Origin: a virus
Length of the DNA: 20,756 bases
IMG/VR virus record: IMGVR_UViG_3300030107_000300
Span: 1-20,756 of that record
Reading direction: 5' to 3' (one strand)
Both the position numbers and the translations under genes were made by a program. Numbering within the stretch: position 1 is the stretch's first letter; every line of letters starts with the position of its first letter. The notes below the pieces were generated by a model. That model had not been told where the DNA came from, did no database searches, and saw only the letters and a list, made by a program, of their open reading frames with translations. Below are positions 422-19,680 of the stretch, one piece after another.

Positions 422-1396
422 ATGGCTCAATTTTTTGAACCCTCAACCGATACTAATGCCAACTTTGGAAACTCCGTAAGTGGACAAACTAATAGTTTCT
501 TTTTACCTAAGATTTACTCTAAAAAGGTTTTAAACTTCTTTAGGAAATCTTCGGTAGTAGAAGCTATCACCAACACAGATTATGCTGGTGAAATATCTGC
601 TTTTGGAGACTCTGTAAGGATTATAAAAGAACCAGTTATCTCTGTGGAAGATTACACAAGAGCAACTGATACAACTGTAACAAGACTAACTGACCAAGAA
701 CTTACTTTGGTTGTTGATAGTGCTAAAGCTTTCAAATTCATCGTAGATGATATTGAAACAAATATGTCACACATCAACTTTAAAGAAGTCGCAACATCAT
801 CTGCTGCATATGCATTGAGAGATTCATATGATGCTGCTGTTATTGCAACTATGTTCTCAGGAGTTTCTAGTTCTTCACCTGACCATGTGTTAGGTACTGA
901 TAATGCTACTGACTTAGCTGCTGGTACATTTGATGGAACTGGTAACTTGGACATTGGTTTTGGTTCTAGTGAGCATGACCCTATTGATGTAATGGCTAGA
1001 ATGGCAAGACTATTAGACGAACAAGATGTACCTGAAGAAGGTAGATGGTTCGTTGCTGGTCCTGACTTCTACGAAGTACTAGGTCAAGCTTCATCTAAGT
1101 TGTTATCTGTAGACTTCAACGCAGGTCAAGGTTCAATTAGAAATGGATTAGTATCAAGTGGAAAACTAAGAGGATTTGAGATGTACAAATCTAATAACAT
1201 TGCCTCAACAACTAATGCTGCTGGTAAAGTTTTAGGTGGACACATTTCATCTACTGCAACTGCTCAAACTATTATTTCAACAGAAACACTAAGAGACCCA
1301 ACATCTTTTGGTGATATAGTTAGAGGATTGCATGTATACGGAGCAAAGGTTTTAAGACCTGAAGCTTTAGTATCAGCTTTCTACGGTATTGATTAA
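422..1396 (+). CDS. Major capsid protein
   Basis: This is a 324-residue protein, close to the length of T7 gp10A-type capsid proteins. It follows a scaffold-like gene and is preceded by a good Shine-Dalgarno sequence (AAGGAG, about 8 bases upstream of the ATG). The N-terminal arm is polar, with FFEPSTDTNANFGN. Then come a basic segment (IYSKKVLNFFRKSSVVEAIT), a beta-rich region with GDSVRIIKEP, a central helix with the DDIETNMSH and ALRDSYDAAVIATMF stretches, and a C-terminal domain with GRWFVAGPDFYEVL and GLHVYGAKVLRPEAL. This order (arm, long helix, then a 'P...Y..L' alpha/beta domain) fits an HK97-fold coat protein. Codon use differs from downstream genes: many C-ending codons (TTC, AAC, GAC, TAC), as expected of the most highly expressed virion gene. 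A stem-loop follows the stop directly. Confidence 0.85.
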   Translation: MAQFFEPSTDTNANFGNSVSGQTNSFFLPKIYSKKVLNFFRKSSVVEAITNTDYAGEISAFGDSVRIIKEPVISVEDYTRATDTTVTRLTDQELTLVVDSAKAFKFIVDDIETNMSHINFKEVATSSAAYALRDSYDAAVIATMFSGVSSSSPDHVLGTDNATDLAAGTFDGTGNLDIGFGSSEHDPIDVMARMARLLDEQDVPEEGRWFVAGPDFYEVLGQASSKLLSVDFNAGQGSIRNGLVSSGKLRGFEMYKSNNIASTTNAAGKVLGGHISSTATAQTIISTETLRDPTSFGDIVRGLHVYGAKVLRPEALVSAFYGID

Positions 1397-1444: not shown

Positions 1445-1627
1445 ATGAAAGATAAAAAAAGAGAAATGTATGCATACGGAACTGAAAAGAAAAAACCTAT
1501 GAAAGGTGGTCGTATGATGTACAAACATGGTGGTGGAGTACATTACTACAATTCAATAGAAGAAAAAGAAAAAAAATGTAGTGAAATGGTAGGTTACAAC
1601 GAAAGTTTAAAAGAAAAAGGTAAATAA
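1445..1627 (+). CDS. Small basic Gly-Gly-motif protein, 60 aa, unknown function
   Basis: The start is supported by AAGGAG at 1434-1439, five bases before the ATG. The 60-residue product is strongly basic and Lys-rich. Around residues 20-32 it has KGGRMMYK followed by HGGGV: two Gly-Gly elements spaced exactly eight residues apart. The same style of motif occurs three times at the N terminus of the 738-aa protein at 9401. No membrane segment or known enzyme motif is visible. The C-terminal half is charged and probably helical (SIEEKEKKCSEM). It lies between the capsid gene and the adaptor gene, and its stop overlaps the next ATG (TAATG). A minor virion or DNA-binding role is possible, but I do not recognise the protein. 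Confidence 0.7.
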   Translation: MKDKKREMYAYGTEKKKPMKGGRMMYKHGGGVHYYNSIEEKEKKCSEMVGYNESLKEKGK

Positions 1628-9400: not shown

Positions 9401-11617
9401 ATGGCAAAACAAAAGAAAAAAAGAAATAAAAAATATAAAAAGTATAAACAAAACTATGTTACTGGTGGTAGAGTAGATATGAGTGCTGGTGGTAGAGTAA
9501 GCTATCAAACTGGTGGTGATGTACCAATGAAACCTAAAGGTTCTGCAACTACAGGTCCTAACGAGGAAGAAGAAAGAGCTAACCAAATGAGAGATAATTT
9601 TTCTATTGAAAGACAGGATAATTTAGGTTTTAATAGAGAAGATGATGTACAAAATTTAGGTAAAAATATTAATAATACATCTAATGATACTGAAGTAAAT
9701 GTAACACCGGATGATGAAACTCCACCAGTACCCGGTACACCTCAAATGGTTGTTGGGTATGGTAAAGATAAAGAAACAACTGCTGACCAACAAAGAACAG
9801 ATAGAATAGCTCAAACTGCTGCAGATGTACAAGCTGCTTCACAAGGTCAAGTTCCTGATAGTGCTGTAATAAAACCTGCTGTAGAAGTAGATGAAAATAT
9901 TGGAAGCACAAAAATTGTAACTCAAAAAGAACAAGAAGAAAGAGCAAAAGCTGCTAAAGCAGAAAGTGTAAAAGAAGAAAAGGTTGCAACCGATGAAGCT
10001 ACAGAAGGAACAGTAGCAGAACAAATAGAAGCAAATACATTTGGAGCAAGAAAAGAAGCATTAGATGCAGAAGTAGAAGCAGCACAAACTGAAATTGATG
10101 AAGATACTATGTTGGCTAAAGCTGCTGGAGTAGATAGAGTAGACCCAATAAAAACAGCTACAGTAGATATACCAGAAGGTGCATTAGCATCAAGAGTAAC
10201 AGGAACATTAAGTCCGGGAGCTATGGCTCAAATATCTAAAAATACTGGTACAAATTTAGCTAGAGTTACTAGAGCTAAAAAACAATTAAGAAATGCAGGA
10301 TTACCAGAAGATGCTATTAATGAATTAGGTAATGACCCTGAAGCTTTAGAAGATAAACTTACACAATTTACAGAGCAAGAAAGAGGACTTATAGCAGGAT
10401 TACCTGAAGAAGCATTAGTATCTAATCAAATGGATAGTCTTTTAAGTGGTATGGAAAATGGTGAAATACCTAACTGGGCAAAACCTGCTGTTGCTAATGT
10501 AGAAGCTATGTTAGCTACTAGAGGTTTGAGTGCTTCTAGTGTGGGTAGAGATAATTTATTTAATGCTATTATACAAAGTGCTGTACCTCTAGCTCAAAGT
10601 AATGCACAAGCTATACAACAAAGCGTAGCTCAACAAAGAGGCATTGAAGCACAAGCTGCAGAAGCTGATGCTCAAAGAAGACAACAAGTAGGTTTAGATA
10701 GAGCTAATAAAGTATTTGGTATGAATATGGCTCAGTTTAGTGCTGACCAACAAACAGAGTTAGCTAATAGTAAATTTTTACAAAGTGTAGGAATGCAAAA
10801 TGCTAATTTTGAACAACAAGGAGTAGTACAAGATGCTTTACTTATGTCTCAAGCTAATTTAGCTGAAGCTGATTTTTTTCAAAAAACTCAAATACAAAAT
10901 GCTCAAGCATTCTTGCAAACAGATATGGCTAACTTAAACAATAGACAACAAGCTAATGTATTAACAGCTCAACAGAATCAACAAAGACTTTTAAGCAATC
11001 AAGCTGCTGATAATGCTGCAAGACAATTTAATGCTGCTAGTGCAAATCAAACAGAACAATTTATGGCAAGTCTTAATGCACAAATGAGTCAGTATAATGC
11101 ATCACAACAAAATGCAATGAAACAATTTAATGCTAGTCAAAAAAATGCTGCAGAAGCTAGAAGAGCTGGTAGAGATGCTGACTTAGAAAAATTTAATGCA
11201 CAACTTTTAACATCAGTAGACCAGTTTAATTCTCAACAGGACTTTGCAAGAAATCAATGGAATGCACAAAATGCTGCAGCAGTAGAAGCTTCTAATGTTC
11301 AATGGAGAAGACAAGCGAATACAATTAATAGTGCTGCTCAAAATCAAATCAATGCACAAAACGCACAGAATGCTTATGGTATGTCTATGCAGTCTATGGC
11401 TTTCTTATGGCAAGAACTAAGAGACCAAGCAGACTTTGATTTTAGAGCTTATGAAAACGAACAAAATAGAATGGCTCAAATAGTTTCAACAGCTATTGGT
11501 AATGAAGGTAGTGCTGGTAAAACATTTGATAATTTATTAACAGGATTAGTAACCACACTAAGTAATTCTTTCCAAAGTGGATTTGGTGGTTCTGTTTATT
11601 ATGGTGGAAATAAATAA
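9401..11617 (+). CDS. Probable internal virion / DNA-ejection protein, Q/N/A-rich, 738 aa
   Basis: The first 18 residues are almost all basic (MAKQKKKRNKKYKKYKQ). Then comes a triple 8-residue Gly-Gly repeat (TGGRVDMS-AGGRVSYQ-TGGDV, residues 21-41). Residues about 45-250 are acidic and disordered-looking, rich in Glu, Thr and Ala. Residues about 255-400 are helical (LASRVTGTLSPGAMAQISKN, then NWAKPAVANVEAMLATRGLSASSVG). The rest, to about 690, is dominated by Gln, Asn and Ala helices, including an 11-residue aromatic periodicity at 543-620. No cysteine was found. Short-tailed phages carry large helical internal core proteins in this part of the genome, so this is inferred to be one of them. 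The start follows the previous stop (TAG) by one base. I cannot assign it to a named family. Confidence 0.62.
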   Translation: MAKQKKKRNKKYKKYKQNYVTGGRVDMSAGGRVSYQTGGDVPMKPKGSATTGPNEEEERANQMRDNFSIERQDNLGFNREDDVQNLGKNINNTSNDTEVNVTPDDETPPVPGTPQMVVGYGKDKETTADQQRTDRIAQTAADVQAASQGQVPDSAVIKPAVEVDENIGSTKIVTQKEQEERAKAAKAESVKEEKVATDEATEGTVAEQIEANTFGARKEALDAEVEAAQTEIDEDTMLAKAAGVDRVDPIKTATVDIPEGALASRVTGTLSPGAMAQISKNTGTNLARVTRAKKQLRNAGLPEDAINELGNDPEALEDKLTQFTEQERGLIAGLPEEALVSNQMDSLLSGMENGEIPNWAKPAVANVEAMLATRGLSASSVGRDNLFNAIIQSAVPLAQSNAQAIQQSVAQQRGIEAQAAEADAQRRQQVGLDRANKVFGMNMAQFSADQQTELANSKFLQSVGMQNANFEQQGVVQDALLMSQANLAEADFFQKTQIQNAQAFLQTDMANLNNRQQANVLTAQQNQQRLLSNQAADNAARQFNAASANQTEQFMASLNAQMSQYNASQQNAMKQFNASQKNAAEARRAGRDADLEKFNAQLLTSVDQFNSQQDFARNQWNAQNAAAVEASNVQWRRQANTINSAAQNQINAQNAQNAYGMSMQSMAFLWQELRDQADFDFRAYENEQNRMAQIVSTAIGNEGSAGKTFDNLLTGLVTTLSNSFQSGFGGSVYYGGNK
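9461..9532 (+). repeat. 24-bp coding repeat, three units (xGGxV motif)
   Basis: Three consecutive 8-codon units, TGGRVDMS, AGGRVSYQ and TGGDVPMK. Each contains the core CTGGTGGT followed by AGAGTA or GATGTA. The Gly-Gly pairs are exactly eight residues apart. Confidence 0.85.
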
Positions 11618-14685: not shown

Positions 14686-17600
14686 ATGTCTAAATTAACT
14701 AACGATAAAACACCTGAATTTAATTTTGATAAAGATGGTAATTTAATATTTGATTTTGATTCTGATATTACTGATGAAGAAAGAAAAAAAATTAAAGAGT
14801 TAGAAAAAAAATATAAATTTAATCGAAAACAAAGATTTGATGAATTTCAAGACCAATTTGAAACTTTTGGTGGAAGAATCCCTGAAGATAAAGTAAGAGA
14901 ATATAAAAGAACTGTAGGATTTGTTCCTGATATTATTAATTCAATAGTAGACTTATCAGAAAGTGTAGCATTAGGTCCTGCTTCAGAAGCAATACTTCAT
15001 GCTCGTGCTGCAAAACAAGGTATATCTAAAGAAGAAGCAAAAAAAGCCTCATATGATAAAGTATATGGAGGATTAGAAAATGTATATAAGTTTTTATATG
15101 GAGATGAAAATATAGAACTTGTTGAGCAGGGAGGGAGAAAAGTTCCTGTTGTTAAGCAACCTAGAGAAGAAAAATATAAAAGAACAATAAGAACTTTTGG
15201 TGAGTTAGGTGCTTTAATAGTTGGTCCGGGTAAAGTAAAAATTTTTACAGACCCTAAAAATCCTCAAAAAGCAAAAACATTTTTTCAAAAATATATTAAA
15301 CCATCAGCTAAAACTAAAAATGCAACACTTGCTGTAGAAGCTCGTTTTTTTGCAGGTTATAATCCTTATCGAGAAGGAGTTATAGCTCCTGCATTAGGAA
15401 ATTGGATAGGTCAAAATAATGAAAGTGAAATGCTTAATGATATTAGTGCTTATCTAACAGCCCCTCCTGAAGAACTTTCTGGATTAGAAAATAGAATGAA
15501 ACATTTTGCTGATGCAGTAGTATTTGGTGGTGTAATAATGACTGGTGGAGCTGCTGGTATAGGAGTTTTTAAAGAAACACCGGGAGCTATAAAAAGAGTA
15601 GCACCTGAAGGTACAGAAAAAGCAATTAAAGCTAGAGATGGTATATTAGAATATTTAAAAAAAGTAAGAGAAAGTGGAACAGAAGGTATAAATAAATTTT
15701 TACAACAAATAAAAGAAGCTACAAAAGTAAATGAAGTACAACAAAAATTATCTATTAAATATAGAGATATAGATTTTAAAGATGGTAAAGTAGTAAGTAA
15801 AGAAGGAGACATGGATGCTTTAAAACCCGGATTTTTTAGTAGATTATTTACTGACATAAACCCAATGTTTAGTGAAAATCCTATACTTAGAGGTATTGAA
15901 TCTTTTAGAAGAAAAGTATTATCTACAAAAGGAAACAAGTCTAAAGCTTTACATGAAAAATATTTAAAGTCTGAAAATGCAAAAGAAAAATGGGAAGATA
16001 GTATATTAAATATAGCTACAAATTTAGAACATAATATAGAACAAATAGTAGCAAAATCTTCTAAAAATAAATTTTTTAAAAACAATCCAGAAAAATTAGC
16101 AGAACTTAAAGAAGAAATTAATCGTGTTTTATATACAGATTTTTCAGATACAAAAACAACATTTTTAAAAGAACTTAATAAGCTACCTAAAGAATTAAGA
16201 CAACCAATAAAAGCAGCTAGAGAGCAACAAAAATTATTATCGCAAGAGATGATAAATACAGGTACTTTAACAGAAGCACAAGAAAAAATATATAGAGAAC
16301 AACTAGAGTTTTATGGTAGAAGGTCTTATGAGTTATTTGAAAATCCAAATTACATTCCAAGTACAGATGCTAGACATGATGCTTTTAAATTTATAAGTAA
16401 TCAAATAAGAAATAGTGACCCAAACAAAGGAACAGTCGATGCATTAACTGATGACCAAATTCATCTTAGAGCTAATAATAAAATAAATGAAATACTAGAT
16501 GTTAAAGGTGGAGATTTTAAAGCAGCAGGAGAAAAATTTACTAGAATTAAAGAAGAAATTTTAAAAGGTAGAAAAGATATTCCTGCTGAAATAAGAAAAT
16601 TAATGGGAGAAATAGATGACCCTACAAAAAGATTTATACATTCTACTGTTAAATTAGCTAACTATGTAGAAGATGTAAAATTCTTTAATGATTCTTTTGA
16701 AGAAGGTGCAGGTATTTATTTTAGAGAAACTTCAGAAGGAGTTTTTAATAAACAAATTCCAGAAGGTTTTGGTCCTTTATCAGGTAGGTATACAACACCA
16801 GAACTTTATAAATACTACAGTAATTATCAAACTATATCTCAAAAAATGTTATCTTCTCAAAATGTAGGAGGTGCTTTATATAGAAATATGGCTATATTAA
16901 AAGGTTTATCTCAAGCAGCTAAAACTGTATGGTCACACACTACTCATGTAAAAAATGTATCTGGTGGTATACAAATGTCTTTAGCAAATGGAGTTAATCC
17001 TTTTAGTCCTAAAAGAATAAATGAAACTATTAAAATTTTAAGAGCTAGAACATCAAACGATGTAGAGCTACAAAAATTACATGAAGAATTAAGTGGACTA
17101 GGTTTATTAAACAAAGGAATTATAGCAAGAGATTTAAAAGGATTAGCTAGTGATATTAAAGCCGGTGGTGCTAAAACTTGGTTAGATTACCCAGCTAAAT
17201 GGGCTAAACAACTAGCTGATGCAGAAAAAATACCTTATTATTCTTTTAAAAATCGTGGATTTAAAACTGGTTCACTATCTCAATTTGCAGATAAGTGGCA
17301 GAAAGCATATGTAGCAGAAGATGATTTCTTTAAAATAAATATGTATTTTGTTGAAAAACAAAGACTAACAAAATTAAATGACTTATATAAAAATAAAAAT
17401 TTAAAATTAACAGACCAAGAAATAAATGAACAAGCAGCTAGAATAGTTAGAGATGTTTTACCCAATTATGATTTAGTTCCTGAACTACTAAGAAATTTAA
17501 GAAGAACTCCTATCTTTGGTAGATTCTTTTCATTTATGGCAGAGTCTGTAAGAATTAGTGGTAACTCTGTAATTAATGGAGTTAAAGAAGTTCATAAAGG

Positions 17601-19680
17601 AAGAAAGTTAATTCAACAAGGAGAAAAAGAAGTAGGTAATGAATTTATTAAAAGAGGTACTTTAAGGTTAGCTTCATTTACTGCGATGGCAGGAGCAGGA
17701 GCTAAAGCAGTAGAAAAAACAAGTCAGGCTGTTACTGGGTTTAGTAATGATGAAAAAGAAGCTGTTAAAGATTTAGCATTACCTGATTACATGCAAAATT
17801 CAAATGTTATGATTACAATAGCACATAATGGAGAACCAGTTATAGCTAATTTAAGTGCTTGGGATGCTTATGATTTTCCTAAAAAACCTTTTCAAGTTTT
17901 AATAAATAAATATCTTACTGATGATATTTTAAATGAAGATGGTTTAGTTCGTGATGTTATGACTACAACATTTCAAGAAACAGTCTCTCCTTTTCTAGGA
18001 CAGTCTATTGTAGCAGAAACATTAGGTGATTATTTCTTAAGACAAGGTAGAGATTTAGATGGAAGATTAATGAAAAATCCTCATAATAGATTAGAAAGAT
18101 TTGAAGTTAAAGATAACTATATAAACTCTTTAACATCTAGAGAAAATTTAAGAATTTTAGGTGCAAATCTTTTTAAAGATATAACTCCCGGAACAGTAGA
18201 TAGAGCTATTGATTTACATAGAGATTTAAATGCTCCTATGGAAAAAACACCTTTTAATCAAAATGTATATAAAAATCAATCATATGTTAAGTTTCTTACA
18301 GGTTGGGGAATGACTCCTATTAATGATGACTATTTAAAAAAGATGCTTGAGTTTAAAAGTTATAATTTTAAGAAAGCAAAATCAGATGCAAGAAGTCAAA
18401 TATCTAGAGCAATAGGTGTTGAATTAGACCCAGAACTTTTTATAAATGAATATATGGATGCAAATGCTAAATATTATGAAGAATATTCAAAGTTTTACAA
18501 AAATATAGAATCAGCAGAAACTCTTGGTATTTATACTACTGAAGAAATAATTAGAAATGACCTGTTAAATAAAAGAGATTATGGTACAATGATTGGACTA
18601 AAGCGTTTTGAACCTATAGGTCTTTCAGATAATATGAAAAGAGAATTATTAATAGTAACTAGAGGAAAAGGTTATTCAGATGTTGTGAGAGCAATAAATC
18701 ATATTGATGGTAAATTATTCTCTATGCCTATTTATACAAGTCCTGAAAATTATAAAAAAGATAAAGAAGAAAAGAAAGAAATAATGGAAGAACTTAGAGA
18801 AGAATATAAAACAGGTGGTAGAGTTTTAAATGTTGAAGAAGACCCTGTAGATAGACAAAATCCTTTTACAGGTAATACATATTCTCAAGATGCACAAATG
18901 CAAAGACTTGGTTTATCTACAGGAGGAATAGCTGGAAACGATATAACTAAAATATTTAAAGATATAATACCTAAAAAATCTGAAACTCAAAAACCTTTAA
19001 AACAATTTACAGATTATATGAATAGATATGATTATAAACCTAAAAAATTAAACTTTGATGAAGGTGGACCTGTTGATTCTTTTGGAGAAACTATTAATGA
19101 TTTAATATCTGATTATAATACTAACTATGAAAAGCAATATAAAAAAGATAAAAAAGGTGAATATGTTTTAGATAAAGATGGGAAATATATTCATACTCAT
19201 AATGCGTGGGTAAACAAAGACCCTGATAAGTTTGTTAGAGATATGTATTTACAATTAAAAAATAGTGGACATCCTTTTCCAGCTATGGCAGCAGTACAAG
19301 CTGGAGTAGAAAGTAGATATGGAATGAGTGATTTATCAAAAGAACATAATAACACTTTTGGAGTTAAAGTAAGAGCAGGAGAAGATTTTAAAGGTACACA
19401 AATGCTTACAAAAGAAGATTATGGAAAAGGTTTAATAGAAGAAGAACACAATTTTAGAAGTTATGATTCTATAAAAGAAAATATAGAAGGTTATATAAAC
19501 TTTTTAGAAACAGGAAAATATGACGATGGTACTCCTAGATACAAAAAAGCTTTAGAAGCATCAAGTGATTTAGAATTTTTACAAGAAATGAAAAATGCTG
19601 GTTATGCTACTGACCAAAAATATATTGAATTATTAACTAGCGTATATAATCGTAATGTAAAAAAAGGTACATTTGATTAA
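14686..19680 (+). CDS. Giant internal virion/ejection protein with C-terminal glucosaminidase-type muralytic domain, 1664 aa
   Basis: The longest gene here; T7 gp16 (1318 aa) has the same role and relative place. The N-terminal half is helical. It has a hydrophobic segment around residues 272-295 (FADAVVFGGVIMTGG), long charged helices (about 300-640), and near residue 745 a HTTHVKNVSGG motif of a kind I recall from very large marine-phage proteins. A second weakly hydrophobic segment lies near 993-1010 (LRLASFTAMAGAGAKAV). A linker at about 1370-1470 carries three Gly-Gly motifs (TGGRV, STGGIAG, DEGGPV). The last ~150 residues resemble N-acetylglucosaminidases of the FlgJ/Acm2 type, with AAVQAGVESRYG (E1542 the likely catalytic acid), then NNTFGVK and FRSYDSIKENIEGYINFL. 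It would cut peptidoglycan during DNA entry. There is no clear Shine-Dalgarno. The stop overlaps the next ATG. Confidence 0.82.
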   Translation: MSKLTNDKTPEFNFDKDGNLIFDFDSDITDEERKKIKELEKKYKFNRKQRFDEFQDQFETFGGRIPEDKVREYKRTVGFVPDIINSIVDLSESVALGPASEAILHARAAKQGISKEEAKKASYDKVYGGLENVYKFLYGDENIELVEQGGRKVPVVKQPREEKYKRTIRTFGELGALIVGPGKVKIFTDPKNPQKAKTFFQKYIKPSAKTKNATLAVEARFFAGYNPYREGVIAPALGNWIGQNNESEMLNDISAYLTAPPEELSGLENRMKHFADAVVFGGVIMTGGAAGIGVFKETPGAIKRVAPEGTEKAIKARDGILEYLKKVRESGTEGINKFLQQIKEATKVNEVQQKLSIKYRDIDFKDGKVVSKEGDMDALKPGFFSRLFTDINPMFSENPILRGIESFRRKVLSTKGNKSKALHEKYLKSENAKEKWEDSILNIATNLEHNIEQIVAKSSKNKFFKNNPEKLAELKEEINRVLYTDFSDTKTTFLKELNKLPKELRQPIKAAREQQKLLSQEMINTGTLTEAQEKIYREQLEFYGRRSYELFENPNYIPSTDARHDAFKFISNQIRNSDPNKGTVDALTDDQIHLRANNKINEILDVKGGDFKAAGEKFTRIKEEILKGRKDIPAEIRKLMGEIDDPTKRFIHSTVKLANYVEDVKFFNDSFEEGAGIYFRETSEGVFNKQIPEGFGPLSGRYTTPELYKYYSNYQTISQKMLSSQNVGGALYRNMAILKGLSQAAKTVWSHTTHVKNVSGGIQMSLANGVNPFSPKRINETIKILRARTSNDVELQKLHEELSGLGLLNKGIIARDLKGLASDIKAGGAKTWLDYPAKWAKQLADAEKIPYYSFKNRGFKTGSLSQFADKWQKAYVAEDDFFKINMYFVEKQRLTKLNDLYKNKNLKLTDQEINEQAARIVRDVLPNYDLVPELLRNLRRTPIFGRFFSFMAESVRISGNSVINGVKEVHKGRKLIQQGEKEVGNEFIKRGTLRLASFTAMAGAGAKAVEKTSQAVTGFSNDEKEAVKDLALPDYMQNSNVMITIAHNGEPVIANLSAWDAYDFPKKPFQVLINKYLTDDILNEDGLVRDVMTTTFQETVSPFLGQSIVAETLGDYFLRQGRDLDGRLMKNPHNRLERFEVKDNYINSLTSRENLRILGANLFKDITPGTVDRAIDLHRDLNAPMEKTPFNQNVYKNQSYVKFLTGWGMTPINDDYLKKMLEFKSYNFKKAKSDARSQISRAIGVELDPELFINEYMDANAKYYEEYSKFYKNIESAETLGIYTTEEIIRNDLLNKRDYGTMIGLKRFEPIGLSDNMKRELLIVTRGKGYSDVVRAINHIDGKLFSMPIYTSPENYKKDKEEKKEIMEELREEYKTGGRVLNVEEDPVDRQNPFTGNTYSQDAQMQRLGLSTGGIAGNDITKIFKDIIPKKSETQKPLKQFTDYMNRYDYKPKKLNFDEGGPVDSFGETINDLISDYNTNYEKQYKKDKKGEYVLDKDGKYIHTHNAWVNKDPDKFVRDMYLQLKNSGHPFPAMAAVQAGVESRYGMSDLSKEHNNTFGVKVRAGEDFKGTQMLTKEDYGKGLIEEEHNFRSYDSIKENIEGYINFLETGKYDDGTPRYKKALEASSDLEFLQEMKNAGYATDQKYIELLTSVYNRNVKKGTFD

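What the first reader, a model, noticed from the sequence alone, without database searches (positions are those of the whole stretch)
9461..9532. Gly-Gly motif with an 8-residue period shared by unrelated virion-region proteins
The 738-aa protein has GG at residues 22, 30 and 38 (TGGRV, AGGRV, TGGDV). The 60-aa protein at 1445 has GG at 21 and 29, the same spacing (KGGRM, HGGGV). The 1664-aa protein carries TGGRV, STGGIAG and DEGGPV in the linker before its muralytic domain. Otherwise unrelated proteins carrying one short motif suggests a common partner, a virion packaging tag or a processing signal.
Basis: partly seen in the sequence, partly recalled or inferred. Interest (0 to 1): 0.55.

Follow-up and report, generated by a model that had tools for sequence, protein, structure and literature searches.

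The report
Shared repeat tag in phage proteins
A short eight-residue repeat (Gly-Gly-Arg-Val-x-Tyr-x-x) turns up in dozens of otherwise unrelated phage particle proteins, mostly ones of the kind that help push DNA into the host, and it looks like a real docking tag whose partner is not yet known.

Summary
The window is a fragment of an HMO-2011-like marine podovirus. The loose form xGGxV is barely above chance here. The specific form GGR[VM] is not (5 seen, 0 of 1000 shuffles reach it), and its 8-residue spacing is exact. Scans of 2.9 million viral contigs found at least 120 stretches with GG[R/S]VxYxxGG (scan stopped at its limit) against 9 for the order-reversed control; 257 Gb of bacterial and archaeal genomes gave 13, apparently unrelated. 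The viral carriers fall into 43 sequence clusters. The repeat sits at N-termini, C-termini and in linkers, and the register runs on outside the searched letters (aromatic or large hydrophobic at -3 in 37 of 42). In 11 phage records all 21 strict hits lie on the capsid-gene strand. Of 40 carriers scanned, the 8 with a PHROG match all match tape-measure or DNA-ejection families. I read it as a short docking element of genome-delivery proteins. The partner is not shown: portal/tail, each other, or the host envelope. A pure capsid-packaging tag is less likely, since tape-measure proteins are not packaged in heads; processing is untested. Literature searches found no description.

The parts
9401..11617 (+). 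738-aa protein, long helical, no family; ejection/internal-virion-protein candidate
   Evidence: no PHROG/Pfam; 22-sequence alignment; AlphaFold2: residues 15-55 pLDDT < 50 without secondary structure, rest mostly helix, overall low confidence
9464..9487 (+). repeat unit 1, GGRVDMSA (residues 22-29)
   Evidence: R24 and D26 at least 90% conserved in 22 homologues
9488..9511 (+). repeat unit 2, GGRVSYQT (residues 30-37)
   Evidence: R32 invariant, G30 and G31 at least 90%; synonymous codon variation
9512..9523 (+). half unit 3, GGDV (residues 38-41)
   Evidence: G38 at least 90% conserved
1445..1627 (+). 60-aa basic protein directly downstream of the major capsid gene
   Evidence: small basic GG-rich ORF at this place in relatives
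1505..1540 (+). GGRMMYKHGGGV, one 8-residue unit plus half unit (residues 21-32)
   Evidence: 34 of 41 distinct relatives have GGx[VIMA] in a small ORF here, 10 of 41 with the 8-residue spacing
14686..19680 (+). 1664-aa virion protein with C-terminal glucosaminidase domain
   Evidence: PF01832 residues 1523-1657, E 2.3e-21; phrog_22602 virion structural protein
18814..18825 (+). TGGRV motif of the linker (GGRV, residues 1377-1380)
   Evidence: kept as TGG[RLI]V in most relatives at least 42% identical
18922..18933 (+). STGGIA motif (GGIA, residues 1413-1416)
   Evidence: second GG 34-41 residues after the first in most of the same relatives
19063..19074 (+). DEGGPV motif (GGPV, residues 1460-1463)
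   Evidence: also in the L134 homologue
422..1396 (+). major capsid protein, marks the virion module
   Evidence: phrog_267, 2.6e-68; 61% to Pelagibacter phage HTVC115P

Best explanation
A recurrent short linear motif. The core is an aromatic or large hydrophobic residue, two residues, Gly-Gly, one residue, then V/I/M/A; it overlaps itself every 8 residues as GGRVxYxxGGRVxYxx. It lies in disordered tails and linkers of phage virion proteins, above all proteins of the genome-delivery kind: podoviral ejection proteins, tape-measure proteins and internal muralytic proteins. Most likely each GG makes a tight turn between short extended segments, and the segments dock, as beta-strand-like adhesive tags, onto a partner shared by the delivered proteins: the portal/tail conduit, the host envelope, or other copies of the same motif, so that these unrelated proteins are held together during assembly or while they build the channel into the cell. 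Shown by computation: the motif, its period, virus specificity, virion-strand confinement, selection on the protein sequence, and the family matches of the few nameable carriers. Inferred: turn/strand geometry, docking, the partner, and that the window's own carriers are ejected.
For: Virus-specific: 13 stretches in all GTDB genomes held, 6 of the 13 being a GGRVVY[GD]xGG stretch of one protein type, the others scattered. Many carriers: 124 occurrences, 114 distinct proteins, 43 clusters with the motif masked. Register beyond the searched letters: Y/F/M/L at -3 in 37 of 42 clusters (P 1e-23), V/I/A/M at +11 in 26 of 42 (P 2e-8), A at -2 in 19 of 42. Place among 42 clusters: 18 internal, 8 N-terminal, 6 C-terminal, 10 small proteins. 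Conserved island: in 22 homologues R24, D26, G30, G31, R32, G38 stand out and the next conserved column is G149; in 7 C-terminal carriers of 31-47% identity the last ~31 residues are nearly invariant. Codons vary while G, R and V/I stay. Carriers with a PHROG match: 8 of 40, all tape measure or DNA ejection. Strand: 21 of 21.
Against: No binding, localisation or structure data. AlphaFold2 gives no confident fold to the motif (the second shows only a 3+3-residue hairpin around one GG at pLDDT near 45). 32 of 40 carriers have no family, so the delivery link rests on 8, some weak (L223, E 0.006; L313, E 0.0008), and 10 of the 40 were picked by me from the GC-rich hits partly for length. The small Lys/Met-rich carriers beside the capsid gene have no known link to delivery. 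The register does not extend to -5 (7 of 42) or +13 (11 of 42). The motif is missing in part of the homologues: only 23 of 36 homologues of the 738-aa protein have GGR[VIMLA] in the first 60 residues, 20 of 36 with the period; HTVC115P, HMO-2011 and contig G003 have no strict hit.
Confidence: 0.45

Rival explanations
1. Head-packaging (capsid-targeting) tag: the motif binds capsid, scaffold or portal during procapsid assembly and brings cargo proteins into the head.
For: Carriers are podoviral internal-protein candidates and a small protein next to the capsid gene; N- or C-terminal placement in 14 of 42 clusters; a near-invariant C-terminal tail in 7 divergent proteins.
Against: Tape-measure proteins carry it too (L302, L313, L317, L331) and are not packaged in heads (established knowledge of long-tailed phages); 18 of 42 clusters have it internally.
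Confidence: 0.2
2. Processing signal: a protease cuts at the Gly-Gly sites and releases tails or separates domains.
For: The motif sits before the muralytic domain in the 1664-aa protein and in HTVC104P gp54, and before a Tat-like RRxFL hydrophobic stretch in 3 of 114 carriers.
Against: Exact 8-residue register and conserved R, V, Y across units are not needed for a cut site; several C-terminal copies would release only a few residues; the fetched stretches of five annotated records list no prohead protease; no proteomics.
Confidence: 0.12
3. Flexible spacer: glycine-rich linker kept only for flexibility or for threading through the portal, with no partner.
For: Lies in regions predicted disordered.
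Against: R, V and Y are conserved, the order matters (reversed control 9 against at least 120) and spacing is exact.
Confidence: 0.12
4. Nucleic-acid contact or condensation element, like an arginine/glycine/tyrosine sticker.
For: The 738-aa N-terminus and the small carriers are strongly basic.
Against: Many carriers are not basic around the motif (FADGGRVGYEAGG) and hold a single copy; units read GGRV, not RGG clusters.
Confidence: 0.08

Closest known systems
Podoviral ejection (internal virion) proteins, T7 gp14-gp16 type
   Same: Late genes behind the tail genes, long helical proteins, one with a muralytic domain; three motif carriers match a DNA ejection protein family, phrog_4287.
   Different: The 738-aa protein matches no ejection family; the review I read in passages and one section (PMC8954989) reports under 10% sequence conservation among ejection proteins and, in what I saw, names no shared short motif.
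Tape-measure proteins of long-tailed phages
   Same: Four carriers match tape-measure PHROGs; in several the motif stands just before a DTVxAMLTPxEFV-like segment.
   Different: The described tape-measure repeats are 11 or 18 residues with Trp/Phe (PMC5099701, passages); this one is 8 residues with Gly-Gly, Arg, Val, Tyr.
T4 capsid-targeting sequence of internal proteins (recalled, no call)
   Same: Short tag common to several unrelated packaged proteins.
   Different: T4's is N-terminal and cut off by the prohead protease; this one occurs anywhere in the chain and no cleavage is known.
Encapsulin cargo-loading peptides (search listing and abstract starts only)
   Same: Short peptides that load unrelated cargo into an HK97-fold shell.
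   Different: Usually C-terminal (recalled); here only 22 of 124 occurrences are, and no shell binding is shown.
RTX nonapeptide repeats (recalled)
   Same: Gly-Gly turns in short tandem repeats.
   Different: Period 9 with calcium-binding Asp; here period 8 and no conserved Asp.

Membership tests
HMO-2011-like podoviruses (the window) | major capsid protein of the HMO-2011/HTVC115P type and neighbouring tail genes | tested here: met
   61% to the HTVC115P capsid and 43% to the HMO-2011 coat protein; phrog_267
Podoviral ejection proteins | sequence match of the carriers to a known ejection family | tested here: inconclusive
   3 of 40 carriers match phrog_4287 (L192, L304, L305); the window's 738-aa protein matches none
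Podoviral ejection proteins | present in the virion and expelled into the host | not testable with these tools
   needs proteomics or tomography
Tape-measure proteins | match to tape-measure families | tested here: met
   for carriers L302, L317, L331, L313, not for the window's proteins
T4-like capsid-targeting sequence | strictly N-terminal placement | tested here: not met
   27 of 124 occurrences N-terminal, 22 C-terminal, 56 internal, 19 in small proteins
T4-like capsid-targeting sequence | removal by a prohead protease | not testable with these tools
   no protease annotated in the fetched stretches; cleavage itself needs proteomics
Encapsulin cargo-loading peptide | C-terminal peptide binding the shell interior | tested here: not met
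   placement not met; binding not testable
RTX repeats | nonapeptide period with conserved Asp | tested here: not met
   period 8; no conserved Asp in the profile

The most novel reading that the evidence does not exclude
GGRVxYxx is a common adhesive code of phage genome-delivery machines: one short self-recognising or host-envelope-binding repeat that spread across unrelated ejection and tape-measure proteins, so that proteins with no other similarity assemble into one conduit. It would be a first sequence marker for ejected proteins.
Probability: 0.25. Interest if true: 0.85.

Novelty: new variant of a known kind. Interest (0 to 1): 0.6.

Why it matters
Ejection proteins are reported to share under 10% sequence between phages (PMC8954989), so they are hard to recognise in sequence and their assembly rules are unclear. 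A repeat shared by dozens of unrelated virion proteins, most of them without a family (32 of 40 here), would give a handle to find delivery proteins in uncultured phages and a concrete target for asking what gathers them.

Tried and rejected
Loose xGGxV as the unit: rejected as the defining form, near chance in the window; on the virion strand of 11 records the loose form with a hydrophobic at -3 is enriched. DNA-level repeat: rejected, Gly, Arg and Val codons differ between relatives while the residues stay. Cellular origin: rejected; of the 13 GTDB matches 6 are one GGRVVY[GD]xGG-type stretch in open frames of about 440-550 aa (I take them for S41 peptidases, recalled) and the others are scattered, several in short or open frames. 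Solved structures: none for the 738-aa profile (E up to 1) or a motif peptide (E up to 10). Isolated phages by a short motif peptide: only Bordetella phage variable-region matches at E about 0.1, discarded. Full-length carriers against isolated phages: 2 of 4 had a match. Literature: GGRVGY, GGRIGY, GGRVNY, GGRVGF, GGRIGF, GGRAGY anywhere in text gave one paper, on duck Tembusu virus, judged unrelated from its title and abstract start; FADGGRV, YADGGRV, FAKGGRV, FATGGRV, FAEGGRV, YASGGRV gave none; three other searches on ejection, tape measure and glycine motifs gave no description of it (listings). The library lacks most subscription papers.

Rows dropped: the single GGSV cluster (L139) before the 42-cluster profile; neighbour cluster 5 (23 ORFs) not scanned because of its size, and 11 of the last 64 neighbour representatives left out of the batch scan. 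One search used 16 contigs that I chose for length and variety; 5 of 16 had no hit. One search used 11 records that I chose, ORFs with ATG starts of 40 aa or more, called per piece of at most 50 kb. Of the 34 GC-rich stretches about ten lie in short or likely wrong-frame ORFs. Fold search was not run because both models were of low confidence.

Full report
What the window is. A 20,756-base IMG/VR fragment with the virion genes of a podovirus of the HMO-2011/HTVC115P kind: capsid protein 61% to Pelagibacter phage HTVC115P and 43% to HMO-2011, tail genes, a Peptidase_S74 fibre, then the 738-aa protein and, after three more genes, a 1664-aa protein with a C-terminal glucosaminidase domain.

Observation. 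Shuffling shows that GGR[VIM] and the 8-residue spacing exceed chance while loose GGxV barely does. In 480 non-redundant proteins from relatives selected by homology (homologues of the same families remain among them), the distance from GG[RK][VIMA] to another GG is 8 in 25 cases and 16 in 5, against about 0.8 expected per distance and no more than 3 at any other distance.

Conservation. Among homologues of the 738-aa protein with a readable N-terminus, 23 of 36 have GGR[VIMLA] in the first 60 residues, 20 of 36 the 8-residue spacing and 32 of 36 some GG. In a 22-sequence alignment R32 is invariant and R24, D26, G30, G31, G38 are at least 90% conserved; the next conserved column is G149, so the motif is an island in a variable tail. 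Codons vary synonymously. AlphaFold2 leaves residues 15-55 without structure. More distant homologues with a different N-terminus still have a related form, MAKGGMI in HMO-2011 and MNGGMVRINYEEGG in L014. Directly downstream of the capsid gene, 34 of 41 distinct relatives have GGx[VIMA] in a small ORF, 10 of 41 with the period. In the 1664-aa family the pair TGG[RLI]V and a second GG 34-41 residues later recurs in most relatives of 42% identity or more. Across all 30 hits with a readable C-terminus only 7 have GGR[VIMLA] in the scanned parts (last 40% or first 80 residues); the more distant ones mostly lack it.

How wide it is. The GTDB collection gave 13, which look unrelated. The AT-rich set holds 124 occurrences in 114 distinct proteins and 43 clusters when the motif is masked. 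Of 42 clusters (one chance cluster dropped), 18 have it internally, 8 N-terminally, 6 C-terminally and 10 are small proteins. Positions that were not part of the search follow the same register: Y/F/M/L at -3 in 37 of 42, V/I/A/M at +11 in 26 of 42, A at -2 in 19 of 42; the register does not extend to -5 or +13. Hence the core unit is a hydrophobic residue, two residues, Gly-Gly, one residue, then V/I/M/A, overlapping itself every 8 residues. Seven C-terminal carriers of 31-47% identity keep a nearly invariant final stretch of about 31 residues.

Which proteins. In 11 records (six contigs of about 51-54 kb and stretches of up to 50 kb of five named phages, HMO-2011 among them) the strict motif occurs 21 times, all on the capsid-gene strand, which holds 131,809 of 177,200 ORF residues; chance of 21 of 21 is about 0.002 by hand. 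Three of the 11 have none (G003, HTVC115P, HMO-2011). In HTVC027P and 023Pt nearly all ORFs lie on that strand, so there the module is the evidence: the hits lie between the large terminase gene and the end of the structural genes. Of 701 neighbouring ORFs of the IMG/VR carriers, representatives of 20 of the 21 largest clusters (400 ORFs) were scanned: 231 ORFs fall in clusters matching head, packaging or tail families (25 of these by weak tape-measure matches), 55 auxiliary metabolism, 7 lysis, 14 DNA metabolism, 93 without informative match. Of 40 carriers scanned against PHROGs 8 match anything, all tape measure (L302, L313, L317, L331 and weakly L223) or DNA ejection (L192, L304, L305); 10 of the 40 were chosen by me from 34 GC-rich hits.

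Mechanism. Shown: a specific ordered repeat under protein-level selection, virus-specific, on the virion strand, shared by unrelated proteins. Inferred: because delivered proteins of both short-tailed and long-tailed phages carry it, a partner met by both (the conduit, the host envelope, or the motif itself) fits better than a capsid site. The alternation V-x-Y between Gly-Gly turns suits short extended segments; the only structural hint is a low-confidence hairpin.

Verdict. Real, general, apparently undescribed in the held library, function unproven.

Noticed in passing
L135:23691-24140 (HTVC115P gp46); HTVC104P gp36: Annotated toxin-activating lysine-acyltransferase (HlyC-like); in HTVC115P it lies directly beside the homologue of the 738-aa protein.
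   Followed up: no
L136:15204-20120 (HTVC104P gp54): A DVFSQFKVTEPT-like segment stands near the N-terminus (two copies) and again right after the GG motif before the lysozyme-like end.
   Followed up: no
L145, L150, L154, L163, L197, L213, L226; L157, L166, L211; L156, L160: C-terminal endings GGLASIL or GGLAGLL, GGIADMLEIYD or GGLADMLEIYD/GGLADMLDIYD, and GGGVQTLFRRKAS or GGGVETLFRRKAS close several proteins; two HTVC115P ORFs end in YKKGGKVSK and FKKGGKVSK.
   Followed up: partly
L156, L175, L200: A Tat-like RRxFL plus hydrophobic stretch follows the motif in 3 of 114 carriers.
   Followed up: partly
window:1445-1627 and relatives: Small Lys/Met/Gly-rich proteins with repeats such as MMYGGMARKKK, many ending in PKAKPN or EVQKPN, follow the capsid gene in many relatives.
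   Followed up: partly
window:4149-8900: Tail fibre with [14 protein letters not shown] repeats and NNTAxGxxAL-type repeats before a Peptidase_S74 domain.
   Followed up: no
L223, L204, HTVC027P gp82: Podoviral proteins that end in a tape-measure-like segment (DDIPAMLSNNEFVFTADAVR...) found by weak matches to phrog_5448.
   Followed up: no
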